This document shows positions 3,569-20,267 of a stretch of 49,376 nt of DNA, piece after piece. The DNA is taken from the NCBI GenBank assembly GCA_902790475.1, contig CADASG010000019.1, forward strand, positions 1 to 49,376. Direction: 5' to 3'. Each line of letters opens with the position of its first letter. The first letter of the stretch is position 1. The stretch is from an uncultured Ruminococcus sp. (lineage in GTDB: Bacteria; Bacillota; Clostridia; Oscillospirales; Acutalibacteraceae). The notes below the pieces were generated by a model, which saw nothing but the letters and a program-made list of their open reading frames with translations, ran no database searches and was not told the origin of the DNA. The translations under genes were made by a program, and so were the position numbers.

Positions 3569-3571
3569 AAA

Positions 3572-3646: not shown

Positions 3647-3740
3647 GGCAACACCGCACAATTCAAGGCGCACGGCTTGCTTGAATATTATTCCGTCAGC
3701 TTGCCCAAAAAATCTCGGCAAGGCGACAGCCTTACCTCAA
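3645..3740 (+). repeat. Miniature inverted-repeat element, left part
   Basis: Bases 3647-3740 are identical over 94 bp to 24577-24670, the left two thirds of the complete element in the toxin pseudogene. The element end GGCAACACCGCACAATTCA is preceded by TA. After CTTACCTCAA the sequence diverges, so the right part is missing here, but a 23-bp piece of it reappears at 4179-4201 in the matching orientation. The last codons and stop of the acetyltransferase gene lie within the shared sequence. Confidence 0.9.
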
Positions 3741-4142: not shown

Positions 4143-4178
4143 TTCTGTTTACTCCTTCGGCAACGCAACATATAGACA

Positions 4179-4201
4179 ACACCTGAATTATGCGGTATTG
4201 C
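4179..4201 (+). repeat. Miniature inverted-repeat element, right-end piece
   Basis: The 23 bp ACACCTGAATTATGCGGTATTGC match exactly the right end of the complete element at 24696-24718. The piece lies just upstream of the acetyltransferase gene. Together with 3645-3740 it brackets that gene as if the gene sat inside a split element. Confidence 0.8.
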
Positions 4202-4209
4202 TTTTACTC

Positions 4210-5015: not shown

Positions 5016-6338
5016 CTAATCACGCTTTTTTGACAGCTTTTTTCTGAGTTGTTTGATGATCGAACTCAAATACCTAAAAAGCGGTTTGGGATCAAGACCT
5101 CTTATCATCAGACTGTTGTTATAACGAATGGGTCTGAGGATAAAGCCTATCACCACATTTGTGAAAAACTGTGTGACAAGTGATGCGGCAGCAGCGCCGA
5201 CAGCACCGAAAAGCGGAATCAATGCCGCATTCAGCGCAACATTTGCCAAGGCTCCCGACAGGTTGATTATCCACAGATATTTCTGCTTGTTTTCAGCGAG
5301 CATCCAGATATTGCGAACACTGCCGTAATTTGAAAAGGTCACATACCAAACAGCGACTCTCAACGCTGTCACACTCGGCAAATATTGCTCTCCGTAAAGA
5401 ATGAGTACTATCGGTCGCGCCAGCAATACCATAAATACACTTTGGATAAGGGAGGCATATGTTATCACGGAATACAATTGTATGATCCGCGGCTCGTATG
5501 CGTCGCTTCCGTCGTGTTTTGCCTCAAGAATAGGGGGGCGCATCGAATCCACGATCGCGGCAAAAACAAAGGCTGTAACGCTGACGCAGGTAATGGCAGA
5601 CGAATAGTATCCGGTTTCTGCTTCATTCATCATCAGCTTTAGCATTATGCGGTCGGTCTGCTGAAATACGGATACCATCATGCTGGCGACGATGTAATAC
5701 TTACTGCTGTGAAGCATTTCCATACCCAGCCGCCATGAGAATTTCAGCTTTTGGTTTCCCATTCTTTTATAAACAATGAGAAGTATCACTGAGATCAGAA
5801 GATAGTCCAGAGTGCTGGATACCGAGAACCAAATAACGCTTCTGCCGGTAACCAGCAGATAGACCTTATACAGCGCAACGATCGTGTATGATATGACCGA
5901 TGCGATCGAAGGATATTTTGAGAGAAGCTTTGCCTGAAACCAGTATTGCACGATCTCGGTTGCCTGAAACAGCAGTGAGAAGCTATATAAAACGCCTACT
6001 AATATCGTCGTGCTTTCACCTGCGTTCGCTACGGAAAGGAAGGTATACATACCTCCCATACAGGCGACCGCCGACATAACATTAAACACCAAAGCCGTAC
6101 CGAGGACTTCTCCTTCGCGGTCGGGCCGCTTGATGAATTCCTGCACCAGTGTTTTGCTCAGTCCCAGCTGCATCAGCGGCAAAAGGAATACTGCGATCGA
6201 CGCCGCATAGCTGATCAGACCATAGTTGGAAGGTCCCAGATATCTTGCGGTCAGCATACCGATTATCAAACTGATAACGGACTGAGCGATCTTGCACCCG
6301 ATCATCCAGGACGCGTTTTTAATTACTCTGTTATTCAT
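5016..6338 (-). CDS. wzx: Oligosaccharide repeat-unit flippase, Wzx (MATE/MOP superfamily)
   Basis: 440 residues with about 12-14 hydrophobic segments and a typical N-terminal start (ASWMIGCKIAQSVISLIIGMLTARYLGPSNYGL), ending in a basic cytoplasmic tail (KQLRKKLSKKRD). Wzx proteins flip undecaprenyl-diphosphate-linked repeat units across the membrane for polymerisation outside. It starts 9 bp after the preceding GT2 gene. An EpsG-type polymerase at 13870-14943 supplies the partner step, so the locus follows the Wzx/Wzy route. Confidence 0.9.
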   Translation of the reverse strand: MNNRVIKNASWMIGCKIAQSVISLIIGMLTARYLGPSNYGLISYAASIAVFLLPLMQLGLSKTLVQEFIKRPDREGEVLGTALVFNVMSAVACMGGMYTFLSVANAGESTTILVGVLYSFSLLFQATEIVQYWFQAKLLSKYPSIASVISYTIVALYKVYLLVTGRSVIWFSVSSTLDYLLISVILLIVYKRMGNQKLKFSWRLGMEMLHSSKYYIVASMMVSVFQQTDRIMLKLMMNEAETGYYSSAITCVSVTAFVFAAIVDSMRPPILEAKHDGSDAYEPRIIQLYSVITYASLIQSVFMVLLARPIVLILYGEQYLPSVTALRVAVWYVTFSNYGSVRNIWMLAENKQKYLWIINLSGALANVALNAALIPLFGAVGAAAASLVTQFFTNVVIGFILRPIRYNNSLMIRGLDPKPLFRYLSSIIKQLRKKLSKKRD

Positions 6339-6347
6339 AAACCGTGA

Positions 6348-7322
6348 TTATTTCTTTCTCTCCAGTATAAATGATACTGTTCTCGGAGCTATGCACAGCA
6401 CCGTCAGTATCATTTTATCTTTAATGCTCAAATAACGCGATCTCCATCCTGCCGAAAGATTCGATCTGACAAAGCGCAGCGCCTGAGTACACACAGGATC
6501 GTTCTTTCTGTCATAGGACGACGGGCAATGACGCAAAAAAGACATGTTTTGATATATTTCATAGCGTTCGGCATAAGGGCTCAGCTCAGGGTAACTGCAT
6601 TCAACTATCTCGCGGATCTCACGGGCGTTCGTCACCATATCGTGTATCGACTTGCCAAAGCTTCGGGTGATGCTTCCGCTTCGTGAAAAATAATAATAGC
6701 CGTTCTTCGGGATATAGCGGATCTCATCGTAGCTCTCCGCCGACTCAAACATGAACAGAACGTCCTCGTTCAATCTCTCCTCTTTGAAACGATTCCGAAA
6801 AAAAACCGAGCTCGGAAAGAGCTTGGAGCAAGCGGATGCATCGCCCGTAAAAAGGAGCAGATCGCGCAGATATTTGATTTTATCCTGTATTTCTTCCGCC
6901 TCTCTTGATGAATACTCCGTAATGGTATTATTTTCATCTATCGCAGAGATCCCGATACAGCCGATAACCCTGTCTTTATCCTTGACTGAGCGGTACAGCT
7001 CCTCATACATATACGGCGATATGAAGTCATCGCTGTCCACGAAGCCGATGTAATCGCCCTTTGAGGCGTCAATACCGGCATTGCGCGCGGAAGATAAGCC
7101 GCCGTTTGATTTATGTATGACCTTGACGCGATCATCAAAATCATAACTGTCACAGACGGCTGCCGAGTTATCGGTCGAGCCGTCGTCCACCAGGATAATC
7201 TCTATGTTGGGATATGTCTGTGCCAGAATCGAATCTACGCATTTTCTCAGCTGTGTCTCAACGTTATATACAGGGATGATAACGCTGATCAACGGTACAC
7301 GGATACTATCCAAACCAATCAT
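6348..7322 (-). CDS. Family 2 glycosyltransferase (GT-A)
   Basis: About 324 residues. A classical GT2 N-terminus (PLISVIIPVYNVE) is followed by ILVDDGSTD, NGGLSSARNAGI and the DxD-like FVDSDDF near residue 100. It should transfer one sugar of the repeat unit on the cytoplasmic face; acceptor and donor are unknown. The reading frame overlaps the upstream GT4 by 17 bp. The ATG at 7322 sits directly on AAGGA, while TTG at 7313 has an ideal 9-nt spacing, so the true start may be a few codons inside. Confidence 0.88.
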   Translation of the reverse strand: MIGLDSIRVPLISVIIPVYNVETQLRKCVDSILAQTYPNIEIILVDDGSTDNSAAVCDSYDFDDRVKVIHKSNGGLSSARNAGIDASKGDYIGFVDSDDFISPYMYEELYRSVKDKDRVIGCIGISAIDENNTITEYSSREAEEIQDKIKYLRDLLLFTGDASACSKLFPSSVFFRNRFKEERLNEDVLFMFESAESYDEIRYIPKNGYYYFSRSGSITRSFGKSIHDMVTNAREIREIVECSYPELSPYAERYEIYQNMSFLRHCPSSYDRKNDPVCTQALRFVRSNLSAGWRSRYLSIKDKMILTVLCIAPRTVSFILERKK

Positions 7323-8451
7323 TCCTTAACTTTTCCGCTTTACTGCACGGACCTGACTCAAACAGATCCCGCGGATCATCTCCTGCCAAAATATGCCCGG
7401 AAAGATCCACAAACCGTTCGGCGGCAACGGTTTCATTCCACACCTGAGTGATCGTGCGGTAAGCCGCTTTTCCGAGCCGACGCTGTTCATTCGGATGCTC
7501 CAGCAGATATTTTACACGGCTGTAAAGTTCTTCTGTATCGCCGGATCGGTAAACGAAACCGTTTTCACCGTTTTTCACTAAAAAAGCGGTGGAACCTGCG
7601 GCATGGGAAGCAATTGCGGCACACCCGGAGTTCATCGCTTCATTAAGTACAGCACCCCAGCCTTCTCTGAAATCTGAGGTCAATAAAAATATCCCTGCGT
7701 TTTCCATGTATGAACGGATCTCCTCCTGAGGATGGAACCCCAAAAACCGTACCGTGTCGTTCAGCCCCATGGAACAAGCCATATCACGGAGCTCCTGCTC
7801 CATTTCTCCTCCGCCGAGAAACTCGATCGTGAATTGATAGCCTTCTTTGCGGAGTCTGCCTGCGACAAGAAGAACGTCATCCGGGTGTTTCAGCTTGAGC
7901 AGTCTCCCTACCCAGATGATCTTATTCTCCTGTTTTTTATTCAGCAGGCTGTCAATGTCTGTATATTTCGTTTCGGGAAAATAACCCCACTTAAATGCTT
8001 TGTCGCGGAAAACACCGAGGCCGGCATAATCAGCCGCAGAGAACGCACTGGCACATAAAAGATAAACAGGTTTTCTGGCAGGATAGTATTTATGCCATTT
8101 TATATACCACCAAATATATTTGATAACCGATGGCTGTGAGCGAATCTGCCTTTCTGCACATCTGAAAATGACCTTTGATTCACGCAAACGTCTATTCACA
8201 AGCTTAGCAGGAGAAGATCCGATCACGACGATATCCGCAGTGTTTATAAGGTATTGACATTTTTTAGGTTCTTCATAATAGCGAAGGACATACTTTATCT
8301 CTTGGTAGCTTTTCCAGCCCTGCAAAAGCCGTTCTTCTTCGATCGGTTGTGTCTCAATAAAATAATACTCTGTATTCTTCAAACCACTGACAGCGTCAGA
8401 GAATGGCTTTTGATGATGATTAAAGTAGTTGGATACAAAAACTATTTTCAC
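7306..8451 (-). CDS. Family 4 glycosyltransferase (GT-B)
   Basis: 381 residues starting at GTG. The C-terminal half has the GT4 donor site: IIWVGRLLKLKHPD, FLGGGEMEQEL, VRFLGF, and the EX7E-type stretch EGWGAVLNEAMNSG near residue 265. The N-terminal acceptor domain is divergent. It is the first gene after a pair of strong hairpins downstream of the large secreted-protein gene, so its translation may depend on partial readthrough or RNA processing. Confidence 0.87.
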   Translation of the reverse strand: MKIVFVSNYFNHHQKPFSDAVSGLKNTEYYFIETQPIEEERLLQGWKSYQEIKYVLRYYEEPKKCQYLINTADIVVIGSSPAKLVNRRLRESKVIFRCAERQIRSQPSVIKYIWWYIKWHKYYPARKPVYLLCASAFSAADYAGLGVFRDKAFKWGYFPETKYTDIDSLLNKKQENKIIWVGRLLKLKHPDDVLLVAGRLRKEGYQFTIEFLGGGEMEQELRDMACSMGLNDTVRFLGFHPQEEIRSYMENAGIFLLTSDFREGWGAVLNEAMNSGCAAIASHAAGSTAFLVKNGENGFVYRSGDTEELYSRVKYLLEHPNEQRRLGKAAYRTITQVWNETVAAERFVDLSGHILAGDDPRDLFESGPCSKAEKLRNDWFG

Positions 8452-8592: not shown

Positions 8593-11500
8593 TTATCTTA
8601 CCATCTTGCCTTCTGCATCAAATGTATAGGTCGTGTCAGCAGGCAGATCACAGGAAGTCTTATACGCATAGAACTTGCCGTTCTTTGCAACGATACCGGT
8701 GGTGCGGATGTAATAATAGTCATCGCCGATCTTGGTCAGACCCTTGTAAACGATCTGATCATTCTCATAGTAATAACCGTCAACGATACCGTTCTTGACG
8801 CCCTCATACGGAGTGGGAGGATCAATCATCTTGCCGTCTACAGCGAACTTGTACTCTCTCTCTGCAGGAAGGTCACAGCTGGTCTTGTACGCATAATATG
8901 TGCCGTTGGTAGCAACGAGACCGGTAGAGCGAATGTAATAGTAATCATCGCCGATCTTGGTAAGACCCTTGTAAACGATCTGGTCATCTTCATAGTAATA
9001 ACCGTCAACGATACCGTTCTTGACGCCCTCGTGCGGAGTGGGAGGATCGATCATCTTGCCGTCCACATCGAACTTGTACTCTCTCTCTGCAGGCAGGTCA
9101 CAGCTGGTCTTGTACGCATAATATGTGCCGTTGGTAGCAACGAGACCGGTAGAACGGATGTAATAATAATCATCGCCGATCTTGGTAAGACCCTTGTAAA
9201 CGATCTCGTCGTTCTCATAGTAGTAGCCGTCTACGATACCGTTCTTGACAGGTTCGGGCTCAGGAACGATCATCTTGCCGTCAGCGCCGAAGGTATAAGT
9301 GGTGTCGGCGGGCAGATCGCAATTAGTAACATAAGCGTAGTAGTCGCCGTCTGTAGCAGCGATACCGTTGGAACGGATATAATAGTAGTCGTCGTCAACC
9401 TTGATAAGACCCATATAAGTGGGAACGCCCTCTTCCATATAATACAGGTTGCCCTCGTACTCAATGAGTCCGTTGATCTTCTCGATGAACTTACCATCCT
9501 CGGTGAATCTTACCCATGTGTTAACAGGGTTATGAGAGTATGCGTTGTACTTAATAACAGAAACACCCTCGGCGCGGTTGCCCTTTGCATAGAAGTAATA
9601 ATCGTTTCCGTCAATTGTAACAAACTCATCGAAGTAATAGTTGGGACCATAGTAGTATCTTGTGCCGTATGTGGTCTCGACCCACTCGCCGTGGAGAAGC
9701 TTGCCGTTATCAAAGGTGTAAGTGAAAGTGTTAGAACTGTTCATTACATCATGGTTGGAAACGGTGCCGTCAACGCCTGCATAGGTAGTCTTATCGAAGC
9801 AATACCATTCATCATCAATCATCTGCCAACCGGAAATCAGCTTATTGTTGATAGAATAGTAATTTACGCCGTCCATCTCGAACAAGCCTGTGCCGCTCTT
9901 ATAGGGCTCGCCGCAGGTCTCGCATACGAACTGATCGCCTTCACGGACATAGCTGTGACCGGTTGCAGGAATAGTTGTGCCCCAAGCTACAACAGAGTTG
10001 CAGTCCTCACAGAAGGTTCTGCCGGTGTAGCCGTCCTCTGTGCAGGTAGCATCAACATCGGGAAGAGCTGTAACTGTGTGTGTGTGTACTGTTCCGTCAT
10101 AAGAGGGCTTGTCAAATTTACCGAGATATCTTTCTGTCGGAGTCTCGATCGTTGCGGTTCCGCAGGAGATCTCTGCGCCATCGGTTGTGGTCAGCAGGCA
10201 CTTTTTAGTCTTTGCAGTAAACCAAATACGCTTGGGCTCGGTGTTCAATACACTAAGTGCGTCGTCGCTGGAGGGAGACCAAATTCTGGTGGGCAGAGAA
10301 ACAAGAGCCGCCTCGCCGGTAGCGTCGGTATCGGCAGTGCGTGTAATGGTGATCTCTGCAATCTGGTCATAATCGAGAACTTTATAGCTTGCAGTGAAGC
10401 CGTCTGCAACAACCATATGATCGAGTTCCCATTTTGTTGCGTTGTTGAGGTCGATATCAACGCTTACGCTGTCAACAGAAGCGATATCGGAAGCAACGAC
10501 ATCCAGCCAATAAAGAGAATCAAAGGGAAGATTTGTCAAAGAGGGATCGTGAGGCTTAACGGTAACAGTGGGTAAAGCTGAAGCAGCGTTAACTGTAAAG
10601 CTTCTTACGATCGATGCAGGGTTGCCGTTGTTGTCTTCAGCATAGAATTTTACAGTATGATAACCGTCGTTCAATGCGATCTGATTTGTAGATACAGCAC
10701 CGTTGTTGAAAGTTGAGGGAACAACATTTCCGTCAATATAAGCCTTTACTGAATCAGCGTTGAGTCCTACAGCTGTTGAAAGTGTAGTATCCTCAGCAAC
10801 ATTTACCATAAAGGAATTCTCGCTGTCTGTCAGAGTCGCGCCGTTGTTAAGTGATGCGGTATCGGTTGATCCTGCATAAGAAAGATTCGAGAATATGGGA
10901 GGAGCTGTATCGTCAGCTGCAGATGAGTATTCAAGAGTGATATCATCAATATAGTATGTGAATTTGCCCTGATCGTTCTTGATATTCATAGCAGAGTCGT
11001 TCTGCCACATCTGCTTGTAATTATAGAACTGGAAGAGCAATGTTTGCGCCAAAGTCTCTGTCTTTCCGAAATAAACGTAGGGCTGGGTGAGTGTGTAAGT
11101 GAAGTAATGCCATCCTGCCTCGTCCTGTTCATTAACGGCATAGTCAGGATTATTGACTTCTTTTGCAGAACCAACAAATGAACGGTCTGCTTTCATCTGA
11201 ACCGGTCTTACGTCGATTTCGTCAGCAACAGCTTCTTCGGGGATCCATGCCCAGAAGCCGAACTTAATCGCGCCTTCACGCTCAAAGTACTCGCCTTCAT
11301 AGTAAAGCCTGTACTGGATCCAGCCGCCCTGAGCAGCGTCAGTGAGATCGACAGTAACAGCCAGCGAGTGCTCGCCGTTTCTGACCTTTCCGGTATTGCT
11401 GTCGGCAATTGAAATCAGCTCGTTTGCAGCTTTATCGCCTTTGGGTAGCTTAACATTGAAATTATAATAGCCCCAGTCATCAAGGTCGTTTTCACCTTCA

Positions 11501-12966
11501 AAGTCAAAGACAACTTCGGAGCCCTTGCCCAAAGTAATGGAGGCAGCCGCAGTGACCTCGTTGTTGAAGGTAAGGGTCGCAGTAACGTCGGACGCTGTAG
11601 CGGCAGCATCGTCCTCGCTTACTGCTGTGAACATAAATCCGTCAAGAGTACCTATTGACGGCTCACTGAATACGAAATTCACGTCGCTGCCCTTAAGCGC
11701 TACCTCGGCGTTTCCGCTGTAAGCATGCATTGTCAAAGGTGCTCTCTTGCCAAAGGGAATGGTCATCTGATCTTGTTCAAATTCCATACGGTCGGGGATA
11801 GCAACATGAACTGTAGTCTCGCCGACTACGTTTCCTCCGTAAACCATCTGAACGACAGCGTCGCCCAAAGTTCCGTTAGAGGTAAATACGCCGTTTTCAA
11901 CCGAACCAAAGGAAGAATCAGCCATCTGCCAGCTTATTTCAGCAGGGATTTCGGCTGCGGTACCGGCAGAGCTTACACCGATAGTATTGATAGTTACTTC
12001 AGAACCGGGAGTGATATAATCGTTCTCGGGAGTCATTGAAGCGTGATCGAATACATCTGAATCGGGAGCTGTATTTACGATCAACAGCGCCATAGATGTT
12101 TCACGCTCGATACCATCGGAGTTCCTTGAACGCTTTGTGAGCGCATTCTCACCTTCACGCTTGGAAAGGTATGAAGATGATCCGCCGCCGTCGCCGTTAC
12201 AAGCCTCAACGCATCCCAGAGAGATCATTACGTCCGCGATCTCATAAGAAGACAAGCCAAAGGCGTAGGGGGACATTCTGCCGTCGCACATCATCATAAC
12301 GATAGTGCCGTCTGCCTTGACGCCGATAACGGAACGGGGATCGCCGCCGGAGTGATCAACAGAACCTGCAACATTTTTGCCGTCCTTTACCATAAAGCCG
12401 AAGTTCAAGCCAATAGCTTCATAGTCGTCAGCCTCAAGAGGCTCTGAAATCGCGCGGAGGTCTGCTGTACCATCCTGCTTTACAGCAAGATAAGTCTGGC
12501 AGCCTACGGTGTTATCATCACCGCGCCAAACAACGCCGTCTACTACAAACTTTCCGAGAGGCTGGTTTGTATCCCAGCTCAAAGCGGTGTTCATAGCGCC
12601 TACAACGTTGTAGCCGTCAGCAACTGCCTGCTCGGCATGCTTGCTTGTGGTGATAACTTTGTACTTGGACTCGTCATTGGGATTTTCCATGTTGGAATAG
12701 TGGGGCAGGATTCCGACGTTTTCATTCTTCGGATCTGCCTCCATAACATGGAGCACCTGACGGCGGCTTCCCGCGTCGTTATCAAGAACTATTTCAGATT
12801 CCTGAACGCCGGGAGATACCACAAAGTCTTTTTTGGATATCACATTGTAATATCCTTCGGTTGAGTCGGTGAAGTCTACGGATGCAAATGCAGATAATGA
12901 AGCTGAAGTAACCAGCAGCATTATACACAGTACAACCGAAAGACCTCGGAAGAAATGTTTTTTCAT
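8593..12966 (-). CDS. Large secreted phosphodiester-glycosidase-like (NAGPA domain) protein with Ig-like, sugar-binding-like and repeat modules
   Basis: About 1457 residues. ATG at 12966 is chosen because AAAGGAG lies 10 nt upstream and a clear signal peptide follows (MKKHFFRGLSVVLCIML, cut after about AFA). Residues about 40-310 match the phosphodiester glycosidase/NAGPA family: GAMNTALSW, GDPRSVIGV, MMMCDGR, and NGDGGGSSSYL, the family's DGGGSS signature. Then come Ig-like regions, a beta-sandwich rich in Trp/Tyr (about 490-680), another Ig-like region, a Cys-bearing FCEDCNSVV/CETCGE segment, and 75-residue repeats containing YKGLTKIGDDYYYIR that resemble choline/glucan-binding repeats. Family members cleave sugar-1-phosphate diesters. 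Its place between licD and GT genes suggests it remodels or binds the phosphodiester-bearing polymer at the surface. Confidence 0.85.
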   Translation of the reverse strand: MKKHFFRGLSVVLCIMLLVTSASLSAFASVDFTDSTEGYYNVISKKDFVVSPGVQESEIVLDNDAGSRRQVLHVMEADPKNENVGILPHYSNMENPNDESKYKVITTSKHAEQAVADGYNVVGAMNTALSWDTNQPLGKFVVDGVVWRGDDNTVGCQTYLAVKQDGTADLRAISEPLEADDYEAIGLNFGFMVKDGKNVAGSVDHSGGDPRSVIGVKADGTIVMMMCDGRMSPYAFGLSSYEIADVMISLGCVEACNGDGGGSSSYLSKREGENALTKRSRNSDGIERETSMALLIVNTAPDSDVFDHASMTPENDYITPGSEVTINTIGVSSAGTAAEIPAEISWQMADSSFGSVENGVFTSNGTLGDAVVQMVYGGNVVGETTVHVAIPDRMEFEQDQMTIPFGKRAPLTMHAYSGNAEVALKGSDVNFVFSEPSIGTLDGFMFTAVSEDDAAATASDVTATLTFNNEVTAAASITLGKGSEVVFDFEGENDLDDWGYYNFNVKLPKGDKAANELISIADSNTGKVRNGEHSLAVTVDLTDAAQGGWIQYRLYYEGEYFEREGAIKFGFWAWIPEEAVADEIDVRPVQMKADRSFVGSAKEVNNPDYAVNEQDEAGWHYFTYTLTQPYVYFGKTETLAQTLLFQFYNYKQMWQNDSAMNIKNDQGKFTYYIDDITLEYSSAADDTAPPIFSNLSYAGSTDTASLNNGATLTDSENSFMVNVAEDTTLSTAVGLNADSVKAYIDGNVVPSTFNNGAVSTNQIALNDGYHTVKFYAEDNNGNPASIVRSFTVNAASALPTVTVKPHDPSLTNLPFDSLYWLDVVASDIASVDSVSVDIDLNNATKWELDHMVVADGFTASYKVLDYDQIAEITITRTADTDATGEAALVSLPTRIWSPSSDDALSVLNTEPKRIWFTAKTKKCLLTTTDGAEISCGTATIETPTERYLGKFDKPSYDGTVHTHTVTALPDVDATCTEDGYTGRTFCEDCNSVVAWGTTIPATGHSYVREGDQFVCETCGEPYKSGTGLFEMDGVNYYSINNKLISGWQMIDDEWYCFDKTTYAGVDGTVSNHDVMNSSNTFTYTFDNGKLLHGEWVETTYGTRYYYGPNYYFDEFVTIDGNDYYFYAKGNRAEGVSVIKYNAYSHNPVNTWVRFTEDGKFIEKINGLIEYEGNLYYMEEGVPTYMGLIKVDDDYYYIRSNGIAATDGDYYAYVTNCDLPADTTYTFGADGKMIVPEPEPVKNGIVDGYYYENDEIVYKGLTKIGDDYYYIRSTGLVATNGTYYAYKTSCDLPAEREYKFDVDGKMIDPPTPHEGVKNGIVDGYYYEDDQIVYKGLTKIGDDYYYIRSTGLVATNGTYYAYKTSCDLPAEREYKFAVDGKMIDPPTPYEGVKNGIVDGYYYENDQIVYKGLTKIGDDYYYIRTTGIVAKNGKFYAYKTSCDLPADTTYTFDAEGKMVR
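8596..9300 (-). repeat. 225-bp tandem coding repeats (C-terminal binding repeats)
   Basis: The 3' end of the secreted-protein gene has three near-identical units with a 225-bp period (for example ACCCTTGTAAACGATCT at about 8750, 8975 and 9200) and a more diverged fourth unit further in. Each encodes 75 residues with YYYIR(S/T)TG and YAYKTSCDLPA blocks. The high nucleotide identity implies recent duplication or ongoing gene conversion, so copy number may vary between strains. Confidence 0.88.
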
Positions 12967-12988
12967 TCTCCTACTTCTCCTTTTTTTA

Positions 12989-13010
12989 TATTTCGGCATA
13001 CGCCGATATT
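12989..13010 (-). promoter_or_regulatory. Small palindrome upstream of the secreted-protein gene
   Basis: TTCGGCATACGCCGAT forms a CGGC/GCCG stem with further flanking A-T symmetry. It lies between the licD stop and the tandem AAAGGAG/TAGGAG sites before the secreted-protein start. It could be a leader hairpin or an operator; no promoter elements are obvious beside it. Confidence 0.35.
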
Positions 13011-13022
13011 TACCAAAAATAT

Positions 13023-13865
13023 TTAATCATTGCCCTGCAAGCGGCGTTTGTATTCCGCATAGGGCAAATCCAAATCGCAGACCGTATAATAGTGATGACC
13101 GACCTTTTGATCATCGGAAAGATCGGCTCTCCAGTTGCCGTAACGTTTAGTTAAATACAAATCGTATTTCTCTGGAATCATAACTGTCAGCCCCTCAAAT
13201 ACCGCCTCTGTCCCCTCACCGTACCATTCGGCGGAATTGAACGCAGAAAGGCTCCTCTCCTCATGATGAATGCACCATATTTCAGCTTTCTCGGGAGAAT
13301 ACCGCTTAACATATTCGGTGAGCTTCCGTAAAGTCTTACCTGTATTACGGTAGATGCCTGTCAGACGGTTGATCCAGTATATTCCAAGCGAACGCAAGCC
13401 GATCCCGACGCCGTATTTTCGGGGAAGATTTGCAGAGCGTCTGCGCTCGAACGCATGCAGTTTTTTCAGATATTTTTTTTGCTCCGAGGCGGTGTTCGGC
13501 AGGCCGTCGATCGGAAAGACATCAATAAACACACCGTGAACGATATCAAGATCCTGCATGTTTTTTTCAATGTAGGTGGTATTGAGATCGCGAAGCTTTG
13601 AAGAAAGAATGGGATAATTCGGATCTGTAATGAAATTCTGCAAAAACATATCATTCGGAAGCATGGACGGAGCTTTTTGACATAAAAGCTCATAATCCGG
13701 TCTCGGAAGCGCCACGTCAATATCGTCGTCCCACGGAATGAAACCGCCGTACTTTACGGCGCCTAAAGCAGATCCGCAGACAAGATAGTATTTCAGTTCC
13801 AGCGTATCGCAGATCCTGATTAACTCACGCAGCAGATCGAACTCTGTCTTTTGTAAATCGTTCAT
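13023..13865 (-). CDS. licD: LicD family phosphotransferase
   Basis: 280 residues with the LicD core near the N-terminus: YLVCGSALGAVKYGG then FIPWDDDIDVALPRPDY at about residues 28-60, the metal-binding DDDID typical of this nucleotidyltransferase-fold family. Members move phosphocholine or other phospho-alcohols from a CDP carrier onto sugars. Here the neighbouring cytidylyltransferase and CDP-alcohol transferase could supply the activated donor. Choline is not demonstrated: no choline kinase or transporter is in the window. It starts 4 bp after the polymerase gene. Confidence 0.87.
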   Translation of the reverse strand: MNDLQKTEFDLLRELIRICDTLELKYYLVCGSALGAVKYGGFIPWDDDIDVALPRPDYELLCQKAPSMLPNDMFLQNFITDPNYPILSSKLRDLNTTYIEKNMQDLDIVHGVFIDVFPIDGLPNTASEQKKYLKKLHAFERRRSANLPRKYGVGIGLRSLGIYWINRLTGIYRNTGKTLRKLTEYVKRYSPEKAEIWCIHHEERSLSAFNSAEWYGEGTEAVFEGLTVMIPEKYDLYLTKRYGNWRADLSDDQKVGHHYYTVCDLDLPYAEYKRRLQGND

Positions 13866-13869
13866 CTTT

Positions 13870-14943
13870 CTATACCTGCCAATAGAACGTATATGGGATT
13901 ATCTTTGAATATCCGGTCTTATAAAACGCAATGCCCAAACACAGTATGATCGCAGAGTATCTGAGGATCACTTTTTGTTTATATGTAAAACGATCCAGAG
14001 ATAAAGACAGAAGCACCGGGAGAGCCAATGAAAAATAGTGGGCGACTCGTTGGAAAATACCGTTGACAAAGAATCTTAAAAGAAAGATATTCATACCGGT
14101 CAGCGCCATATATAATAAGATATTGGTGCTTTCATCGTCTTCCGTTTTGATCAGTATAAATGATGCGATCACAATTATGTAGATCAATAACGTGATATAT
14201 CCGCCGCTTGTTTCCAGTCCCTGTCCGTTGCCGTAGTGGTCGTTGATAAGGAAATTACCAACCTCCAAAAACCAATTAACGAAATACAAAACCATTCCGT
14301 ATAAAACAACAAATGCCAGAATATTCAGCGGCTTCTTATTAAACCTTCGGAAAAAATACACAGCAAAGAATACGAATGCCGAAGCGTGAAATGTCATCGC
14401 AAAAGCAACCAAAAGGAAAAACGAAATCGGTTTCTGTTTTTTTGCTCTTTCAAGAGCGAAAAGACAAATACAAATCGCGATGCCCTGTCTCAGACCCTGA
14501 ACCAAAAAGGCAAACATACCGAGCGATGAAAACATGACAAAGCCCAAGCAAAGATCCCTGACGTTGAAATACATGAATCTTGCAAGTGCGACAGCGACCA
14601 GTACACCGTATAGAATGAAGTGGAACTGACGCCAGCGAAAAATATGAGACAACACCCAAACGCTGATAAGATATCCTTGTTCGATATCAATGTTATTCAT
14701 AACATTGAATAAACGGGGGAGAGGGATGTTCTTCAATAGATCCCACGTGTCCAAATAAAAAAATGCATCTCCGGAGCCGACAAATACGCTCTTAAACCCG
14801 AGCATAAAGAAAACAAAAAAACCCATGATACTGACATACAGTTTTCTGTCAAAGGGCTCGCGGTTGAGTGAGCGTTTATTAAAAAGTATAAACACCAATT
14901 CTACCAAAACCGGTGACAGCATAAATAAAGAGTAACTCAGCAT
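13870..14943 (-). CDS. EpsG/Wzy-like polysaccharide polymerase
   Basis: 357 residues with about 9-10 hydrophobic helices and scattered charged loops, including FVGSGDAFFYLDTWDLLKN and VQGLRQGIAICICLFALE. The RQG motif after a helix is typical of EpsG/O-antigen polymerases. It should join flipped repeat units outside the membrane. Overlap of 7 bp with the upstream GT4 and a 4-bp gap to licD indicate cotranscription. Sequence is poorly conserved in this class, so the call rests on topology and context. Confidence 0.8.
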   Translation of the reverse strand: MLSYSLFMLSPVLVELVFILFNKRSLNREPFDRKLYVSIMGFFVFFMLGFKSVFVGSGDAFFYLDTWDLLKNIPLPRLFNVMNNIDIEQGYLISVWVLSHIFRWRQFHFILYGVLVAVALARFMYFNVRDLCLGFVMFSSLGMFAFLVQGLRQGIAICICLFALERAKKQKPISFFLLVAFAMTFHASAFVFFAVYFFRRFNKKPLNILAFVVLYGMVLYFVNWFLEVGNFLINDHYGNGQGLETSGGYITLLIYIIVIASFILIKTEDDESTNILLYMALTGMNIFLLRFFVNGIFQRVAHYFSLALPVLLSLSLDRFTYKQKVILRYSAIILCLGIAFYKTGYSKIIPYTFYWQV

Positions 14944-16160
14944 GAGATTTCCCCGTTTTTTTCAACTATTTCTTCAAAAATCGTAACGTACCTTGCAAAA
15001 CAACTCCGCTCGTCAAAGCGTTTGGCTTCCGCGGAGCATTTTGCGGATTCTTCCTGTGTCTTAAAAGATACTTGCAGTAACGCTTTTTCCAGCTCATCGG
15101 TGTTTTTGGAGGTGATGACCCGGGTAAATCCGTCTATTCCGGATTCGGAGCACCCTCCGGTATCAAAGGTGATAACAGGCGTTCCGCACGCGAGAGCCTC
15201 CATATTAACCGTAGGATAGTTGTCCTGACGCGTCGGATTGATCAGTACATCAGCGGCGGAGTATATCTCTGCAAGCTCTTTTTGGTTCTGTGTACGGTGT
15301 ATCGAAATGATGCTTTTCGGTAAGGACTTGTCAACCGAATCATCCGTACCGACCAGAATGAAGGCGTAACGTTGAGGATCCATACGATTTGCAAGTTCAA
15401 TTATGATATCAAGTCCCTTTCCGTAGTTCCATACAGCAGCTACACCCAAAACCATGATCTTGTTTTCAAGTCGGTGCTTTTTCCTGAAATCGGTCTCAGT
15501 CGGTACAAACACATTCAAATCGATCCCGTTGTGAATAACGTATCGCGGCTTGTCTGATAAAAATGATTTTTCAACCTCGTCTGAGAGCCATTTTGACGGT
15601 ACGATTATTCTTAGCTTTTCAACTGAAGCAAACAATTCTTTTTTTTTACGGTACAAGGAACGGCTGCGATCGAAAAACCAACTATAGGGATACTCCTTAC
15701 GGTTCGGGCAATCATGACAACCGCTCTGCCAACGGTAACACCTTGCGATTTGGTAATGTGTACAGTGCCCGGTAAACGCCCAGCAATCGTGCAGGGTCCA
15801 TAACACAGGCTTATCATACTCCTTTAAAAACCGAAATAAGACACCTATATGAAGATAGTAACCGTGAAGATTATGCAAAAGGATCAAATCGGGATCAATG
15901 TCCCTGATAGTTCGTATCAGCTTCTGAGTTGCAAAATAGGAATGAAAGCCTGTATCTCCGAATATCCTTGCCAGCAGCTGGTGTACTCTTAACATCAGCT
16001 TAGTGCCGATCATGATTCCGTGCGGATCATCACTGCGGTGGTTTGCGCTGTAAAGGATATAATTCTCACAGCCCTTTTCATCAAGTTTACGGCTGATCGC
16101 AGAAGCGATCCGACCGGTACTTCCTCTTCCGCACTCACTGTTGATCTGTATAACCTTCAT
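14937..16160 (-). CDS. Family 4 glycosyltransferase (WcaL/mannosyltransferase-like)
   Basis: 407 residues. The N-terminus IQINSECGRGSTGRIA has the glycine-rich acceptor-domain start seen in capsular GT4 enzymes, and LLHNLHGYYLH plus WTLHDCWAFTGHC carry the family's middle motif. The donor site is at the C-terminus (GVAAVWNYGKGLDI, EIYSAADVLINPTRQDNYPTVNMEALACGTPV). Cys residues in CTHYQIARCYRWQSGCHDCP may bind zinc, as in related colanic-acid-type enzymes. Sugar specificity cannot be read from sequence. Confidence 0.88.
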   Translation of the reverse strand: MKVIQINSECGRGSTGRIASAISRKLDEKGCENYILYSANHRSDDPHGIMIGTKLMLRVHQLLARIFGDTGFHSYFATQKLIRTIRDIDPDLILLHNLHGYYLHIGVLFRFLKEYDKPVLWTLHDCWAFTGHCTHYQIARCYRWQSGCHDCPNRKEYPYSWFFDRSRSLYRKKKELFASVEKLRIIVPSKWLSDEVEKSFLSDKPRYVIHNGIDLNVFVPTETDFRKKHRLENKIMVLGVAAVWNYGKGLDIIIELANRMDPQRYAFILVGTDDSVDKSLPKSIISIHRTQNQKELAEIYSAADVLINPTRQDNYPTVNMEALACGTPVITFDTGGCSESGIDGFTRVITSKNTDELEKALLQVSFKTQEESAKCSAEAKRFDERSCFARYVTIFEEIVEKNGEISC

Positions 16161-16173
16161 ATATGCCTTCCAA

Positions 16174-17136
16174 TTATTTGACCTTTATCTTTCTGAACAA
16201 ATCGCGCGCGATCGTTCTTCCTTTTCCGAGAGCGGTATACCAAATCGCCTTGAAATGCAGACTCATCGGCGAAGTGACTTCACCTTTCAGGTATTTTTGA
16301 AAGGTATACTCGGCGGCGCCCGTTATACCGCGTTTTTTCAAGCCGAGATAAAACCGCTCCATGTCCTTGGTATCTGTCCCGGGATAGGCGTTCAGTCTGT
16401 CGGCGATATCTCTGTGTAATTCATCCAGCTCACGGTCAAAAAGCGATACCTTCGTCTTTCCGACCTGCTTTCCGTGCGAACGGTTCTTCACCAGGATCCG
16501 ATGGATACAGTAGAACTGATATCCGCCAAACAGCAGGCGGTACCAATACTCGACATCTGAAACTGTACGGATATCCTCGCGAAACTCACCGACATCTGCG
16601 ATACACGCCTTGGGCAATAAAAACGAACAGCCTGAAAGCCTGTAGTTGAACACATTGCCGATAATGGTATCTATGGTGTTTTCCCTGACCGGTAAATCGG
16701 AATAGTTAGGTGTTTTGATAACCTTGCCGTCGCAGTCGATCGACTCCGTAGCGGTATGGAGCACGACCTTTTTCAAATCCATATCCGGATTCTCTTCTGC
16801 AAGCTGATTCAGGAAGGAGATCTGGATCTCTGTTTTTTCGGGATAATAAAGATCGTCATGAGAGAGCCATGAGAAATACTCCCCGTTCATCTTCTTAAAC
16901 GCGTAATTCAATGCGGAGGATACGCCGCCGTTTTCTTTATGAAAATAACGGATCCTGTCCCCGTAGGAGAGCGCGATCTTCTCGCTCTCGCCGTTATCCG
17001 TTGATCCGTCGTTTATTACAAGGATCTCGGTATTCTTATATGTTTGTCCCAGAGCACATTCGATTGCCTGAGACAGAAAATTCGAGCCGTTATATACAGG
17101 AATAATAATCGAAACTATAGGGTCGGTTTTCATCAT
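16174..17136 (-). CDS. Family 2 glycosyltransferase (GT-A)
   Basis: 320 residues. Start MKTDPIVSIIIPVYNGS, followed by ILVINDGSTDNGES, ENGGVSSALNYAF and the catalytic-site segment SWLSHDDLYYPEKTEIQ, where HDD replaces the usual DxD spacing. It has a basic C-terminus. It adds one repeat-unit sugar on the cytoplasmic side. The cytidylyltransferase gene ends 3 bp upstream of it, which argues for translational coupling. Confidence 0.88.
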   Translation of the reverse strand: MMKTDPIVSIIIPVYNGSNFLSQAIECALGQTYKNTEILVINDGSTDNGESEKIALSYGDRIRYFHKENGGVSSALNYAFKKMNGEYFSWLSHDDLYYPEKTEIQISFLNQLAEENPDMDLKKVVLHTATESIDCDGKVIKTPNYSDLPVRENTIDTIIGNVFNYRLSGCSFLLPKACIADVGEFREDIRTVSDVEYWYRLLFGGYQFYCIHRILVKNRSHGKQVGKTKVSLFDRELDELHRDIADRLNAYPGTDTKDMERFYLGLKKRGITGAAEYTFQKYLKGEVTSPMSLHFKAIWYTALGKGRTIARDLFRKIKVK

Positions 17137-17139
17137 TAT

Positions 17140-17547
17140 CTATTTCTCCAGATTGTTTCTTAACATGGTAGAGGATATCCCGTCCGTATGCGGAAAGTAG
17201 ACAAACTCTACGCCGGTATCCCTGAATTGATCCTCATACTTTTTCCAGGCGTCGCTGCCCTTCCAGTCGGAACCGACAAACATCTTATCAAACCGATACT
17301 TTTCCCATGCTTCGTATTTATTCTTATCCGTCTGCGGAACAACGCGGTCAACATACCGTATCGCTTCTACGATCCGGACCCTGTCGTTAAAGGGAATAAG
17401 AGGCATATGTCCTTTTTCGGAAGCAACCAGCTCGTCCGTACTGACGCCCACGATCAGGTAGTCGCAGGCTTCTTTTGCCCGCCGCAGAATATTGAGATGT
17501 CCGATATGGAACATATCAAAGACACCGGTCGTATATCCGATAACCAA
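17140..17547 (-). CDS. tagD: CTP-dependent cytidylyltransferase, TagD/glycerol-3-phosphate type
   Basis: 135 residues, the usual length for TagD. GVFDMFHIGHLNIL at residues 8-21 contains the nucleotide-binding HxGH (His14, His17), and DGISSTMLR near the end corresponds to the second signature. Family members couple CTP to glycerol-3-phosphate or related alcohol phosphates, giving a CDP-alcohol. The start is TTG at 17547, 7 nt after AGGAGAA. It sits directly after a CDP-alcohol transferase gene, so the pair probably makes and uses a CDP-linked group for the polymer. Ethanolamine- or ribitol-type substrates are not excluded. Confidence 0.85.
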   Translation of the reverse strand: MVIGYTTGVFDMFHIGHLNILRRAKEACDYLIVGVSTDELVASEKGHMPLIPFNDRVRIVEAIRYVDRVVPQTDKNKYEAWEKYRFDKMFVGSDWKGSDAWKKYEDQFRDTGVEFVYFPHTDGISSTMLRNNLEK

Positions 17548-17550
17548 GAG

Positions 17551-18351
17551 TTAATTCTCCTTTTCCATCTCTCTGCGCTTCGCCTGCGCCGTTTTCTCAA
17601 ACACTGATGCCTTCCTGCAGTAGATCACGCTCACAGCAAGGAACGATAGTATATAGTAAGCGGTATAACATACCAGCATGATATCAAAAGTATTGGTGAA
17701 CAAAGAAACAAACAGCCACGGCATAAACAATCCGGCAACACCGAAGTTCTTGTCGATCTGCTCTCTGATGTAGGCAAAGCTGCGTTTATCCTCGGTATCC
17801 TTGAGCGTGATATCATCGGTTTCATGAAGGATATTTTTCGCGGCAAAATAGCAGTTCATATATTTTTGATGAACAAGGCGCATGTACATATTTGCCGTCG
17901 CGCCGATACCGCCGATCAAAATCAGCGTCCAGCGAAAGCCCTCGGGTACCAGAAACGAGGTGTGGAACGCCGCCATACCAAGTGCGATCGTCGTAAAGGA
18001 AAACGGTCCGTAACCTGCAGCGGCGTCAAAGAAATCGCCCATAAAAGAATTGTTTTTCTTAACTCTGGCAATGTTTCCGTCAACGCAGTCCAGAACCAAC
18101 CAGAAATTTGTCAGAATAACGCCTGCCAACATACACCAAAACTGATCGAGGCTCAGCAAAACCGCTGCGACAAAAATCAGGACCCACGAAAGCACGGAAA
18201 CCATGTTTGCCGTCCAGCCTGTGTTAATAAACAGGTACGTCACGGGAAAGGACGCCTTTCTGACCCACAGCTGTACCCAAAGAGAGCTGCGGCTGTTTTT
18301 CTTTTTTGTTAAAGATCGTTTTATCTCACTGTATGTATACTTGTGTTTCAT
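17551..18351 (-). CDS. CDP-alcohol phosphatidyltransferase family membrane protein with variant active site
   Basis: 266 residues with about six membrane segments. The CDP-alcohol motif starts at Asp88: DCVDGNIAR, then Gly105 and Asp109 at the expected spacing. The fourth Asp, expected at residue 113, is Gly (DAAAGYG), so the usual catalytic-base position is altered. Canonical enzymes transfer a phospho-alcohol from or to CDP-linked donors, including phospholipid synthesis. Location in a polysaccharide locus beside a TagD-like enzyme suggests handling of a CDP-linked head group for polymer decoration rather than housekeeping lipid synthesis. Confidence 0.82.
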   Translation of the reverse strand: MKHKYTYSEIKRSLTKKKNSRSSLWVQLWVRKASFPVTYLFINTGWTANMVSVLSWVLIFVAAVLLSLDQFWCMLAGVILTNFWLVLDCVDGNIARVKKNNSFMGDFFDAAAGYGPFSFTTIALGMAAFHTSFLVPEGFRWTLILIGGIGATANMYMRLVHQKYMNCYFAAKNILHETDDITLKDTEDKRSFAYIREQIDKNFGVAGLFMPWLFVSLFTNTFDIMLVCYTAYYILSFLAVSVIYCRKASVFEKTAQAKRREMEKEN

Positions 18352-18368
18352 TCAGACACTCCGTACAT

Positions 18369-19517
18369 TTAAAGTACTTCCTTATATATTTTCCACATCG
18401 CGTTCAGCGCATGTGTCTTATCAAACTGCTGAACCGCCTTTTGACAGGGGTCTTTCATTTTTTTTCGCAAATCAGGGTCATCTGTAAGCTTTACGATCGC
18501 CGATGCAAACGCATCCGCGTCGTCCGGAGGGCACGCATACCCGGTCACGCCGTTTTTCACATAATCCAGGATCCCGTGTATGTTTGACGCGATAAGCGGT
18601 ATCCCGGCTGCCATTAATTCAATTCCCGCGAGTCCCAATCCTTCGATTTTTGAGGGAAATGCGCCGATATCCGCTGTTTTGCACAGCTCGGGGATATCCT
18701 GCCGAAAGCCGAGGAAAATCACCCTTTCCCTCACCTTTAGTTCTTCCGAAAGCTTGACCAAATACTCTTTCAGGGGTCCTTTTCCGCAAATGACATAGTA
18801 AATATCCCTGCGATCCAGCATCGAAAGCGCTTTGATGATAACCTCATGGTTTTTTCGTTCAATCAGCTCGCCGACCGAGAGTATCATCACAGCGTTTCCC
18901 TTGACGCCTATACTCTTTTTGTATACTTCTTTATCGACCTGAGCGCTCTCAAAGCGTTTAATATCAACGCCTACTCCCGGAATATAACGGACGTTTCGTG
19001 TATGGAATCGCTGTGCGCGGTGATAGTCCTCTTTGCAAATAGTTACAAGATAATCGCAGTATCGTGACAACTGCCGTTCTATCGGATAATAGATCAGCCA
19101 GTTCTTTTTGGGTGACGCGTTATGAAAATGAAAGCCGTGACAGGTATACATCACGGTGGTGCCGCTTTTTCTTGCCTTACGCGCCGCCAACCTTGTATAA
19201 ACCGATGCCGCAGGAGTATGACAGTGGATCAGATCAAAGACATTCTCATTTATTAGCTGCCTGAGCATTCGGTATGCGTCCATATTCTTTTTACCCAAAG
19301 GGCTGCGATCGAACGGGATATTGTGCCAGATGACCCCGTCTTTTCCTGACTGTTCAACATAAGCGACGGTTCTGTTTACATCGGTATCATCCATATAATC
19401 GAGATTACAGGCTACATGGACTTCACAACCCAGCTCCTTTTGTAAAAACAGTATGTTTTCCTGATTGAACCATTCAATAAAGGATATGACGCTGGCGACA
19501 ATAAGCACCTTTTTCAC
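18369..19517 (-). CDS. Family 4 glycosyltransferase (EpsD/EpsF-like)
   Basis: 382 residues from a GTG start 7 nt after GGAG. N-terminal features DLIHCHTPAASVYTRLAARKAR and YTCHGFHFH are typical of EpsD-type GT4 enzymes. The donor domain shows ILSVGELIERKNHEVII, GKGPLKEYL, VIFLGFRQDIPEL and PSKIEGLGLAGIELMAAGIPL. As the first glycosyltransferase after the initiating transferase, it is likely to add the second sugar to the lipid-linked primer. Confidence 0.88.
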   Translation of the reverse strand: MKKVLIVASVISFIEWFNQENILFLQKELGCEVHVACNLDYMDDTDVNRTVAYVEQSGKDGVIWHNIPFDRSPLGKKNMDAYRMLRQLINENVFDLIHCHTPAASVYTRLAARKARKSGTTVMYTCHGFHFHNASPKKNWLIYYPIERQLSRYCDYLVTICKEDYHRAQRFHTRNVRYIPGVGVDIKRFESAQVDKEVYKKSIGVKGNAVMILSVGELIERKNHEVIIKALSMLDRRDIYYVICGKGPLKEYLVKLSEELKVRERVIFLGFRQDIPELCKTADIGAFPSKIEGLGLAGIELMAAGIPLIASNIHGILDYVKNGVTGYACPPDDADAFASAIVKLTDDPDLRKKMKDPCQKAVQQFDKTHALNAMWKIYKEVL

Positions 19518-19532
19518 ACAATCACTCCGTTG

Positions 19533-20267
19533 TTACGATACATTCTTCAGCAGTTCAGCAGCATGCCGTTGCTTTTGCTGATAGCATTCAAGAGTGACCT
19601 TCTTTTCTTTGAGCAGATAATCACCGAAATCATCACAAATATCGATCTCGTTTACTTCGGGATCACGCTTGAACATTTTATATATCGTCTTTAATACAAT
19701 CTTAAAATCTTCTCTAAAACTGATGCGCTCTATGTATTCCAGGTCGATACGCAGCTTGACTTCCCAGGCAAGCGCGTTTCTGCCGCTCACCTGAGCAAGA
19801 CCGCTCAGCCCCGGGCGCACCAAATGGCGTCGCCTCTGTTCATCAGTCATGAAAACCATATCTCTGACGAGCTGCGGGCGCGGTCCGATCACGCTCATAT
19901 GCCCGGCAAGAATATTCAATACCTCGGGCAGTTCATCCAGCGAGGTGGAGCGGAGCAGCTTTCCGAAGCGTGTCAGACGCACACTGTCGGGGAGCAACTT
20001 GCCGTTTTCATCTTTTTCATCAGTCATTGTTCGGAATTTGAATAGAGTAAATATCTTTTCTTCTCCGGTCTTGGGATCGATCTTCCCGGGGCGCGGCTGC
20101 TTGAATATCACGGGACTTCCGAGGTTGATCCTCACAAGCAGAGCCACGATGCCGTACAGCCAAAAGAATAGGATCATCGTCAGCAAGGCGCACAGAATAT
20201 CGATCAAACGCTTGATATACCTGCTGTAAATGCCGTTGACCGGGGAGCGGCGATGCGGTTTGATCAT
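19533..20267 (-). CDS. Initiating undecaprenyl-phosphate sugar-1-phosphate transferase
   Basis: 244 residues of the bacterial sugar transferase (small monotopic PGT, PglC/WcaJ-core) type. One N-terminal membrane helix (ILCALLTMILFFWLYGIVALLV) is followed by GSPVIFKQPRPG, FTLFKFRTMT, LLRSTSLDELPEVLNIL, MSVIGPRPQ and RPGLSGLAQVSGRNAL. It loads the first sugar phosphate onto the lipid carrier. It lacks the multi-helix N-terminal region of full WcaJ. Its start overlaps the aminotransferase stop as ATGA. That coupling suggests the aminotransferase makes an amino sugar used as the first residue. Confidence 0.9.
   Translation of the reverse strand: MIKPHRRSPVNGIYSRYIKRLIDILCALLTMILFFWLYGIVALLVRINLGSPVIFKQPRPGKIDPKTGEEKIFTLFKFRTMTDEKDENGKLLPDSVRLTRFGKLLRSTSLDELPEVLNILAGHMSVIGPRPQLVRDMVFMTDEQRRRHLVRPGLSGLAQVSGRNALAWEVKLRIDLEYIERISFREDFKIVLKTIYKMFKRDPEVNEIDICDDFGDYLLKEKKVTLECYQQKQRHAAELLKNVS

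What the first reader, a model, noticed from the sequence alone, without database searches (positions are those of the whole stretch)
8593..18351. Polysaccharide locus combining CDP-alcohol synthesis, LicD transfer and a secreted phosphodiester-glycosidase-like protein
A TagD-like cytidylyltransferase, a CDP-alcohol transferase, a LicD enzyme and a 1457-residue secreted protein of a family that hydrolyses sugar-1-phosphate diesters are in one operon with Wzx/Wzy. The set suggests a polymer carrying phospho-alcohol or phosphodiester groups that is trimmed or recognised outside the cell by its own enzyme. The binding-repeat tail could keep the enzyme on the polymer. I know of no described system with this exact composition.
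Basis: inference. Interest (0 to 1): 0.8.

Follow-up and report, generated by a model that had tools for sequence, protein, structure and literature searches.

The report
Sugar-coat operon with built-in surface enzyme
A rumen-type gut bacterium encodes, inside the gene cluster for its own surface sugar coat, a large secreted enzyme that probably cuts sugar-phosphate links in or under that coat; the enzyme's place in such clusters recurs in many related bacteria, but the exact four-gene set first noticed does not.

Summary
A 20-gene, one-direction Wzx/Wzy operon (23146 to 175, minus strand) holds a CDP-alcohol transferase, a TagD-like cytidylyltransferase, LicD and a 1457/1468-residue secreted NAGPA protein.

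The quartet is not a conserved unit. The CDP-alcohol transferase matches in 1 of 101 genus genomes (its own) and in 0 of 76 relatives' loci with the giant. It belongs to a backbone cassette also seen, without LicD or NAGPA detected nearby, in another family and on a Lactiplantibacillus EPS plasmid.

Best reading: a self-directed, surface-tethered phosphodiester glycosidase. By known NAGPA chemistry it should not remove LicD or CDP-alcohol marks. The only sugar-1-phosphodiester that the gene content predicts is the LCP-made anchor to peptidoglycan, so the giant may release the polymer (inferred, untested). NAGPA giants with wall-binding repeats are in print as conflict proteins; this is a new variant of a known kind.

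The parts
8593..12999 (-). Giant secreted NAGPA protein, 1468 aa from the first ATG; probable start at residue 12 (1457 aa), followed by a signal-peptide-like stretch (by eye)
   Evidence: ORF, Pfam NAGPA 87.3 bits, ribosome site before residue 12
12067..12882 (-). NAGPA catalytic domain (residues 40-311) with N137, R222, D239, N268, D270-GGGS, R299
11500..12066 (-). Two Ig-like (Big_2/invasin-type) domains, residues about 312-500
   Evidence: Fold matches of model residues 275-454
8596..9891 (-). C-terminal repeat tail (residues 1037-1468), repeats spaced 225 nt (75 aa), choline-binding/CROP/glucan-binding type
   Evidence: DNA repeats; Foldseek matches to TcdA CROPs, LytB, CbpJ, CbpF by E-value, with low whole-length TM-scores; Choline_bind_1 19.5 bits, just under cut-off
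13023..13865 (-). LicD phosphotransferase, 23 bases upstream of the giant's longest frame
   Evidence: Pfam 143.2 bits; gap; recurrent position
17551..18351 (-). CDP-alcohol phosphotransferase of a divergent clade: motif D88xxDGxxAR...G...D109xxxG113, fourth Asp replaced by Gly
   Evidence: Pfam 33.2 bits; motif
17140..17547 (-). TagD-like cytidylyltransferase (substrate unproven)
   Evidence: Pfam CTP_transf_like 74.1 bits; TIGR01518 96.9 bits, below its cut-off of 165.4
16174..17136 (-). Glycosyltransferase family 2 (part of the backbone cassette)
   Evidence: 61% identity in syntenic G737
14937..16160 (-). Glycosyltransferase family 4
   Evidence: 44% identity in syntenic G737
13870..14943 (-). 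EpsG-type Wzy polymerase
   Evidence: Pfam EpsG 118.4 bits; 37% identity in G737
18369..19517 (-). Glycosyltransferase family 4 (backbone cassette)
   Evidence: 67% identity in G737
19533..20267 (-). Priming sugar-1-phosphate transferase (Bac_transf)
   Evidence: Pfam 183.1 bits
20264..21448 (-). DegT/DnrJ/EryC1 sugar aminotransferase
   Evidence: Pfam 298.7 bits
21595..23146 (-). Wze (21595-22329) and Wzz (22313-23146) chain-length/kinase pair
   Evidence: Pfam; similar genes in relatives' loci
5016..8451 (-). Wzx flippase (5016-6338) and two glycosyltransferases (6348-7322, 7306-8451)
175..4962 (-). Lipoprotein-like ORF (4210-4962, by eye), acetyltransferase (3732-4142) and three sugar-nucleotide genes of CapE/CapF/UDP-GlcNAc 2-epimerase type, suggesting an N-acetylfucosamine-type sugar (reading of the trio recalled)
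   Evidence: Pfam
23496..23523 (-). Perfect sigma-70-type promoter match upstream of wzz
   Evidence: 12 of 12 with extended -10; a consensus match only

Best explanation
This is the Wzx/Wzy surface-polysaccharide operon of an uncultured rumen/gut-type Clostridium (its closest named relatives are mostly Ruminococcus, Oscillospiraceae or Clostridia MAGs). It is built from two modules of different history. Module A is a backbone cassette (priming transferase, GT4, CDP-alcohol phosphotransferase, TagD-like cytidylyltransferase, GT2, GT4, EpsG) that makes a repeat unit carrying or linked through a phospho-alcohol, most likely glycerol-phosphate or a similar group. Module B is LicD plus the NAGPA giant. 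LicD adds a further phospho-alcohol. The giant is exported, is held at the cell's own surface by its repeat tail, and hydrolyses a sugar-1-phosphate diester of the cell's own polymer layer. No enzyme recognised in the operon is of a kind that I know to put a sugar-1-phosphodiester inside the chain. The likeliest target is therefore the bond by which LCP enzymes anchor the finished polymer to peptidoglycan, with glycosyl-phosphate side groups as the alternative. Shown: gene content, order, predicted catalytic fold with conserved motif, tail type, recurrent linkage. Inferred: export, binding partner, substrate, direction of action.
Confidence: 0.5

Rival explanations
1. Conflict or predation protein: the giant attacks the envelope of competitors, and its place in the polysaccharide operon only ensures co-expression or a docking site.
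For: PMC12419801 (section 31 read) describes large Bacillota proteins with NAGPA, Ig-like domains and cell-wall-binding hairpins plus prok-TelC and reads them as conflict systems; lengths and C-terminal parts vary strongly between relatives here too; SPbeta-type phages carry a NAGPA-family gene.
Against: Pfam reported only NAGPA in the whole window protein at E 0.01, no TelC-type family (no TelC profile was run on its own); the gene runs inside the cell's own Wzx/Wzy operon here and near polysaccharide markers in 57 of 76 loci. Immunity genes were not looked for.
Confidence: 0.15
2. Adhesin or scaffold: the NAGPA domain has become a sugar-phosphate-binding or structural module and the protein mainly sticks cells to surfaces or cellulosomal parts.
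For: Very long modular proteins (about 850-3730 aa, some truncated), Ig-like domains, a weak CBM_17_28 match below cut-off in L066, a C-terminal cohesin in the L112 giant, a dockerin protein in the window.
Against: The active-site motif residues are invariant or at least 90% conserved in 46 rows at 31-46% identity to the window, which binding alone would hardly need.
Confidence: 0.17
3. One reading: TagD-like, CDP-OH transferase, LicD and NAGPA form one dedicated mark-and-trim system.
For: All four are in one operon here.
Against: CDP-OH query matches 1 of 101 genus genomes, 8 of 398 of the family, own included, and 0 of 76 giant loci; the cassette without LicD or NAGPA nearby exists elsewhere.
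Confidence: 0.05
4. Polymer quality control or size control inside the export pathway: the NAGPA domain cuts undecaprenyl-linked or stray sugar-1-phosphate intermediates outside the membrane instead of the wall anchor.
For: Undecaprenyl-diphosphate-linked chains carry the same C1-O-P bond (established knowledge); position within the operon; the vertebrate enzyme also hydrolyses UDP-GlcNAc (PMC12024695, passage).
Against: A wall-binding-type tail of more than 400 residues suggests action away from the membrane (inference); action on polyprenyl-linked sugars is not mentioned in the passages I read.
Confidence: 0.13

Closest known systems
NAGPA / DUF2233 phosphodiester glycosidases (human uncovering enzyme; BACOVA_00430, PDB 3ohg)
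   Different: Here one part of a 1457-residue secreted protein with Ig-like domains and a repeat tail, encoded in a Wzx/Wzy operon
Bacillota giants with prok-TelC + NAGPA + Ig + cell-wall-binding hairpins (PMC12419801, section 31)
   Same: NAGPA combined with Ig-like and cell-wall-binding repeats in large secreted proteins
   Different: No TelC-type family reported by Pfam here; encoded among the cell's own polysaccharide genes and often directly behind LicD ('licd' occurs 0 times in that paper's main text)
Pneumococcal choline-binding proteins with LicD-decorated teichoic acid (e.g. Pce/CbpE, LytB)
   Same: Logic of a LicD-type phospho-alcohol mark plus a surface enzyme with choline-binding-type repeats (Foldseek matches 7pl2, 2bib)
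   Different: Enzyme is a phosphodiester glycosidase; choline is unproven and no choline kinase (PF01633) matched in the own genome
EPS plasmid locus of Lactiplantibacillus plantarum SN35N (pSN35N-3)
   Same: Order sugar transferase-GT-tagD-CDPOH-GT2-EpsG, flippase further on; same Gly in place of the fourth Asp of the CDP-OH motif
   Different: No LicD or NAGPA among the 23 annotated features shown; the collection's gene table is incomplete
LCP (LytR-CpsA-Psr) wall anchoring of capsule and teichoic acid
   Same: Makes the sugar-1-phosphate diester to peptidoglycan that NAGPA chemistry could cut (PMC8807736, PMC12220298, passages)
   Different: LCP makes the bond; an enzyme that cuts it for capsule release was not named in the passages read

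Membership tests
NAGPA phosphodiester glycosidase | Sequence profile PF09992 over curated cut-off | tested here: met
   87.3 bits against 25
NAGPA phosphodiester glycosidase | Catalytic fold | tested here: met
NAGPA phosphodiester glycosidase | Family-conserved R, D, N-x-DGGGS residues | tested here: met
   R222, D239, N268, D270, GGGS, R299; their catalytic role is recalled, the 2013 paper was not held
NAGPA phosphodiester glycosidase | Hydrolysis of a sugar-1-phosphodiester | not testable with these tools
   Needs purified protein
LicD phosphotransferase | PF04991 over cut-off, WDDD motif | tested here: met
   143.2 bits against 22.6; IPWDDDID in the translation
Lic-1 phosphocholine pathway | Choline kinase in the genome | tested here: not met
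   No PF01633 match in G000; 24 of 101 genus genomes match, 15 over cut-off. The genome is 94% complete and in 174 contigs, so a missed gene is possible
Choline-binding protein | Choline-binding repeats over cut-off | tested here: inconclusive
   Window 19.5 against 20.5 bits; inside the aligned tail of L066 (31.3) and L095 (37.4) over the cut-off of 27; in Acetitomaculum (L136) strong repeats lie just behind the aligned part
Choline-binding protein | Beta-hairpin solenoid fold | tested here: inconclusive
Choline-binding protein | Binds choline | not testable with these tools
   CROPs and glucan-binding domains of the same type bind sugars
CDP-alcohol phosphotransferase | PF01066 over cut-off | tested here: met
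   33.2 against 22 bits
CDP-alcohol phosphotransferase | Full motif DxxDGxxARx8Gx3Dx3D (recalled) | tested here: not met
   Fourth Asp is G113. Of 8 sequences compared: Gly in window, G737, G154, G221 and L. plantarum; His in G038 and G117; Asp in G178
Glycerol-3-phosphate cytidylyltransferase (TagD) | TIGR01518 equivalog cut-off | tested here: not met
   96.9 against 165.4 bits; nearest solved chains are ethanolamine-phosphate and glycerol-3-phosphate enzymes
Wzx/Wzy polysaccharide locus | Flippase, polymerase, priming transferase, Wzz/Wze together | tested here: met
prok-TelC + NAGPA conflict giants (PMC12419801) | TelC domain beside NAGPA | tested here: inconclusive
   No Pfam family but NAGPA in the whole protein at E 0.01; no TelC profile was run

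The most novel reading that the evidence does not exclude
The NAGPA giants of this clade are polymer-release enzymes: they cut the sugar-1-phosphate diester with which LCP ligases anchor Wzx/Wzy polysaccharides to peptidoglycan, the bacterial counterpart of the lysosomal uncovering reaction on GlcNAc-1-P-6-mannose, and so decide whether the polymer stays as capsule or leaves as exopolysaccharide. Because the anchor is shared by polymers of different composition, the enzyme stays in the operon while LicD, CDP-alcohol genes and glycosyltransferases turn over around it.
Probability: 0.22. Interest if true: 0.78.

Novelty: new variant of a known kind. Interest (0 to 1): 0.5.

Why it matters
A 2025 review (PMC12220298, passages read) says that Gram-positive capsule is either kept by LCP proteins or released as EPS 'by an unknown mechanism', and that the bacterial factors of release are poorly understood. 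A secreted phosphodiester glycosidase that recurs in polysaccharide operons of many rumen and gut Clostridia is a direct candidate that can be tested on a defined bond. It would also give a physiological role to bacterial relatives of the uncovering enzyme in Gram-positive surface polymers, and show how a surface-tethered enzyme is kept with polymers of changing chemistry.

Tried and rejected
Four-gene system: rejected on linkage. NAGPA as eraser of LicD or CDP-alcohol marks: rejected on chemistry (known specificity for sugar-1-phosphodiesters; inference). Canonical choline pathway: no choline kinase match in the own genome, so phosphocholine was not adopted. Tail needs LicD: association weak or uneven (48 giants: tail and LicD 21, tail only 16, LicD only 3, neither 8, with LicD within 4.5 kb upstream; 27 of 42 against 3 of 12 with LicD anywhere in the locus, p 0.02) and not independent on the tree. 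Viral contigs: none matched the six peptide patterns of the giant. Phage and plasmid searches with the NAGPA part gave 32 phage records (20 named Bacillus) and 15 plasmid records. I looked into two of the 15 plasmids: Pseudobutyrivibrio xylanivorans pNP95, whose 2071-residue giant has the window-type tail and lies among acyl- and glycosyltransferase genes, and a Monoglobus S-layer-domain protein outside any polysaccharide locus. A printed structure of the L. plantarum SN35N polymer: none in the listing or the passages. Literature searches for the combination; no title listed there was on LicD-linked NAGPA giants (this library only, listings capped). VIA rows for the tail have large rmsd over long stretches; only short pieces align well.

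Full report
WHAT IS THERE. The window is contig C19 of a 2.7-Mb, 174-contig genome, 94% complete. From 23146 down to 175, twenty genes run on the minus strand with gaps of -17 to 163 bases, behind a perfect but unproven promoter match. They are Wzz, Wze, a DegT aminotransferase, a priming transferase, GT4, CDP-OH_P_transf, a TagD-like enzyme, GT2, GT4, EpsG (Wzy), LicD, the NAGPA giant, GT4, GT2, Wzx, a lipoprotein-like ORF, an acetyltransferase and three sugar-nucleotide genes.

ORGANISM. The giants most like it in the named genome collection (best 80 of 558 confirmed hits, itself a capped list) come mostly from rumen and gut MAGs filed as Ruminococcus sp., Oscillospiraceae and Clostridia, with a few named strains: Acetitomaculum ruminis, Terrisporobacter mayombei, Fusibacillus kribbianus, Sporolactobacillus shoreicorticis and Lachnospiraceae bacterium YSD2013.

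LINKAGE. Searches gave 78 loci, 76 with a giant of 800 aa or more. LicD on the same strand within 1.5 kb: upstream 27 of 67, downstream 2 of 54. Many loci end at contig ends, so these are lower bounds. In the genus sample of 101 genomes, NAGPA is in 31, LicD in 101, the CDP-OH query in 1, its own, and TIGR01518 in 40, over its cut-off in 8. In 398 family genomes the CDP-OH query matched 8; in 394 order genomes, 3, own included in both. Against: of 14 giant regions from other genera of the family, 6 lie in polysaccharide loci by my reading of the neighbours (one of them, L215, on a CapF-like gene alone), all with a tail; the other 8 do not, 5 without and 3 with a tail. Control: 24 small NAGPA genes have no LicD or polysaccharide marker within 1.5 kb; the 6 giants in that same short-flank set had none either.

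TREE. On 55 giants (quick method; the window has a long end branch) the polysaccharide-locus label needs 4 changes and LicD 12. The window's starred clade of 27 rows, itself included, is entirely in such loci. The association of tail with locus (39 of 42 with the tail, 5 of 12 without, p 4e-4) is therefore largely a matter of clades, and independent-pair tests are powerless.

TWO MODULES. G737, in another family of the order, has DegT (53%), priming transferase (53%), GT4a (67%), CDP-OH (69%), TagD-like (75%), GT2a (61%), GT4b (44%) and EpsG (37%) in the same order, followed by a pyruvyl transferase, a TPP enzyme, a dehydrogenase, a GT and Wzx, and no LicD or NAGPA match on the contig. CDP-OH at 69-71% in a different family, against 32-33% in the same family (G154), suggests horizontal transfer. 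L. plantarum pSN35N-3 has the same core, with the order of tagD and CDPOH swapped and a gene annotated tagD. The CDP-alcohol pair thus seems to belong to backbone synthesis. The fourth Asp of the CDP-OH motif is Gly in the window (G113), G737, G154, G221 and L. plantarum, His in G038 and G117, Asp in G178, so catalysis in this clade may differ from the textbook enzyme (the role of that Asp is recalled).

MECHANISM. NAGPA releases phosphodiester-linked sugars (PMC12419801 section 31; PMC12024695 passages). LicD and CDP-OH enzymes are not expected to make sugar-1-phosphate diesters, and Pfam shows no Stealth family and no TagF-type gene over cut-off in the operon. LCP enzymes make one at the reducing end of wall-anchored polymers (PMC8807736 and PMC12220298, passages). 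The genome has three LCP genes, one in this window outside the operon, and some relatives carry LCP in the giant's locus. This is an argument by elimination, not a demonstration.

WHAT IS KNOWN. NAGPA with Ig-like and wall-binding hairpins, joined to prok-TelC, is described in PMC12419801 (section 31 read) and read as a conflict system. A link of the family with exopolysaccharide is also in annotations, such as 'exopolysaccharide biosynthesis protein' for the phi3T gene. The operon linkage and the LicD neighbour were not mentioned in what I read.

VERDICT. Observation right; the composition is idiosyncratic, not a system. The recurrent part, a tethered NAGPA enzyme in self-polysaccharide operons, is a new variant of known kinds with a sharp, testable function.

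Noticed in passing
L074:8008-13863 (G448), residues about 1748-1918: This giant ends in a tyrosine-phosphatase-type domain (Y_phosphatase3, E 1e-20), a second phosphate-acting domain after NAGPA.
   Followed up: no
L112:14324-15229; window 25643-26971: The L112 giant ends in a cohesin domain (E 8e-8), and the window has a CHAP-SH3-dockerin protein: possible docking of cellulosome-type enzymes on such giants.
   Followed up: no
L109, L123, L204, L205: Two NAGPA giants in tandem in one locus.
   Followed up: no
window 4210-4962 and 18 of 76 loci: A lipoprotein-like protein of about 157-350 aa recurs near the giants, within 1.5 kb upstream in 7 of 67; the three scanned (window, L075, L112) have no Pfam family at E 0.01.
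   Followed up: partly
L199 (G737:C31) against window 13870-21448: Backbone cassette shared with a genome of another family, CDP-OH at 69-71% identity: likely horizontal transfer.
   Followed up: partly
G442:C12, G433:C3, L147:18850-20075: LicD stands next to a TagD-type gene in places where no CDP-OH relative was found, so some LicD enzymes may use CDP-glycerol-type donors.
   Followed up: no
Genus sample: LicD is in 101 of 101 genomes, often in open frames of 600-680 aa that suggest a fusion.
   Followed up: no
Phage records H17-H30: SPbeta/phi3T-type Bacillus phages carry a NAGPA-family gene, annotated variously or as hypothetical.
   Followed up: no
window 31486-37492: A separate plus-strand surface cluster: a Big_2 protein, a sortase and an LCP protein.
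   Followed up: no
L100 (G154:C1): Same-family genome with CDP-OH (33%) and TagD-like (58%) separated by two genes, one like an asparagine-synthase-type enzyme by eye, beside a priming-transferase relative; no NAGPA match in the stretch.
   Followed up: no
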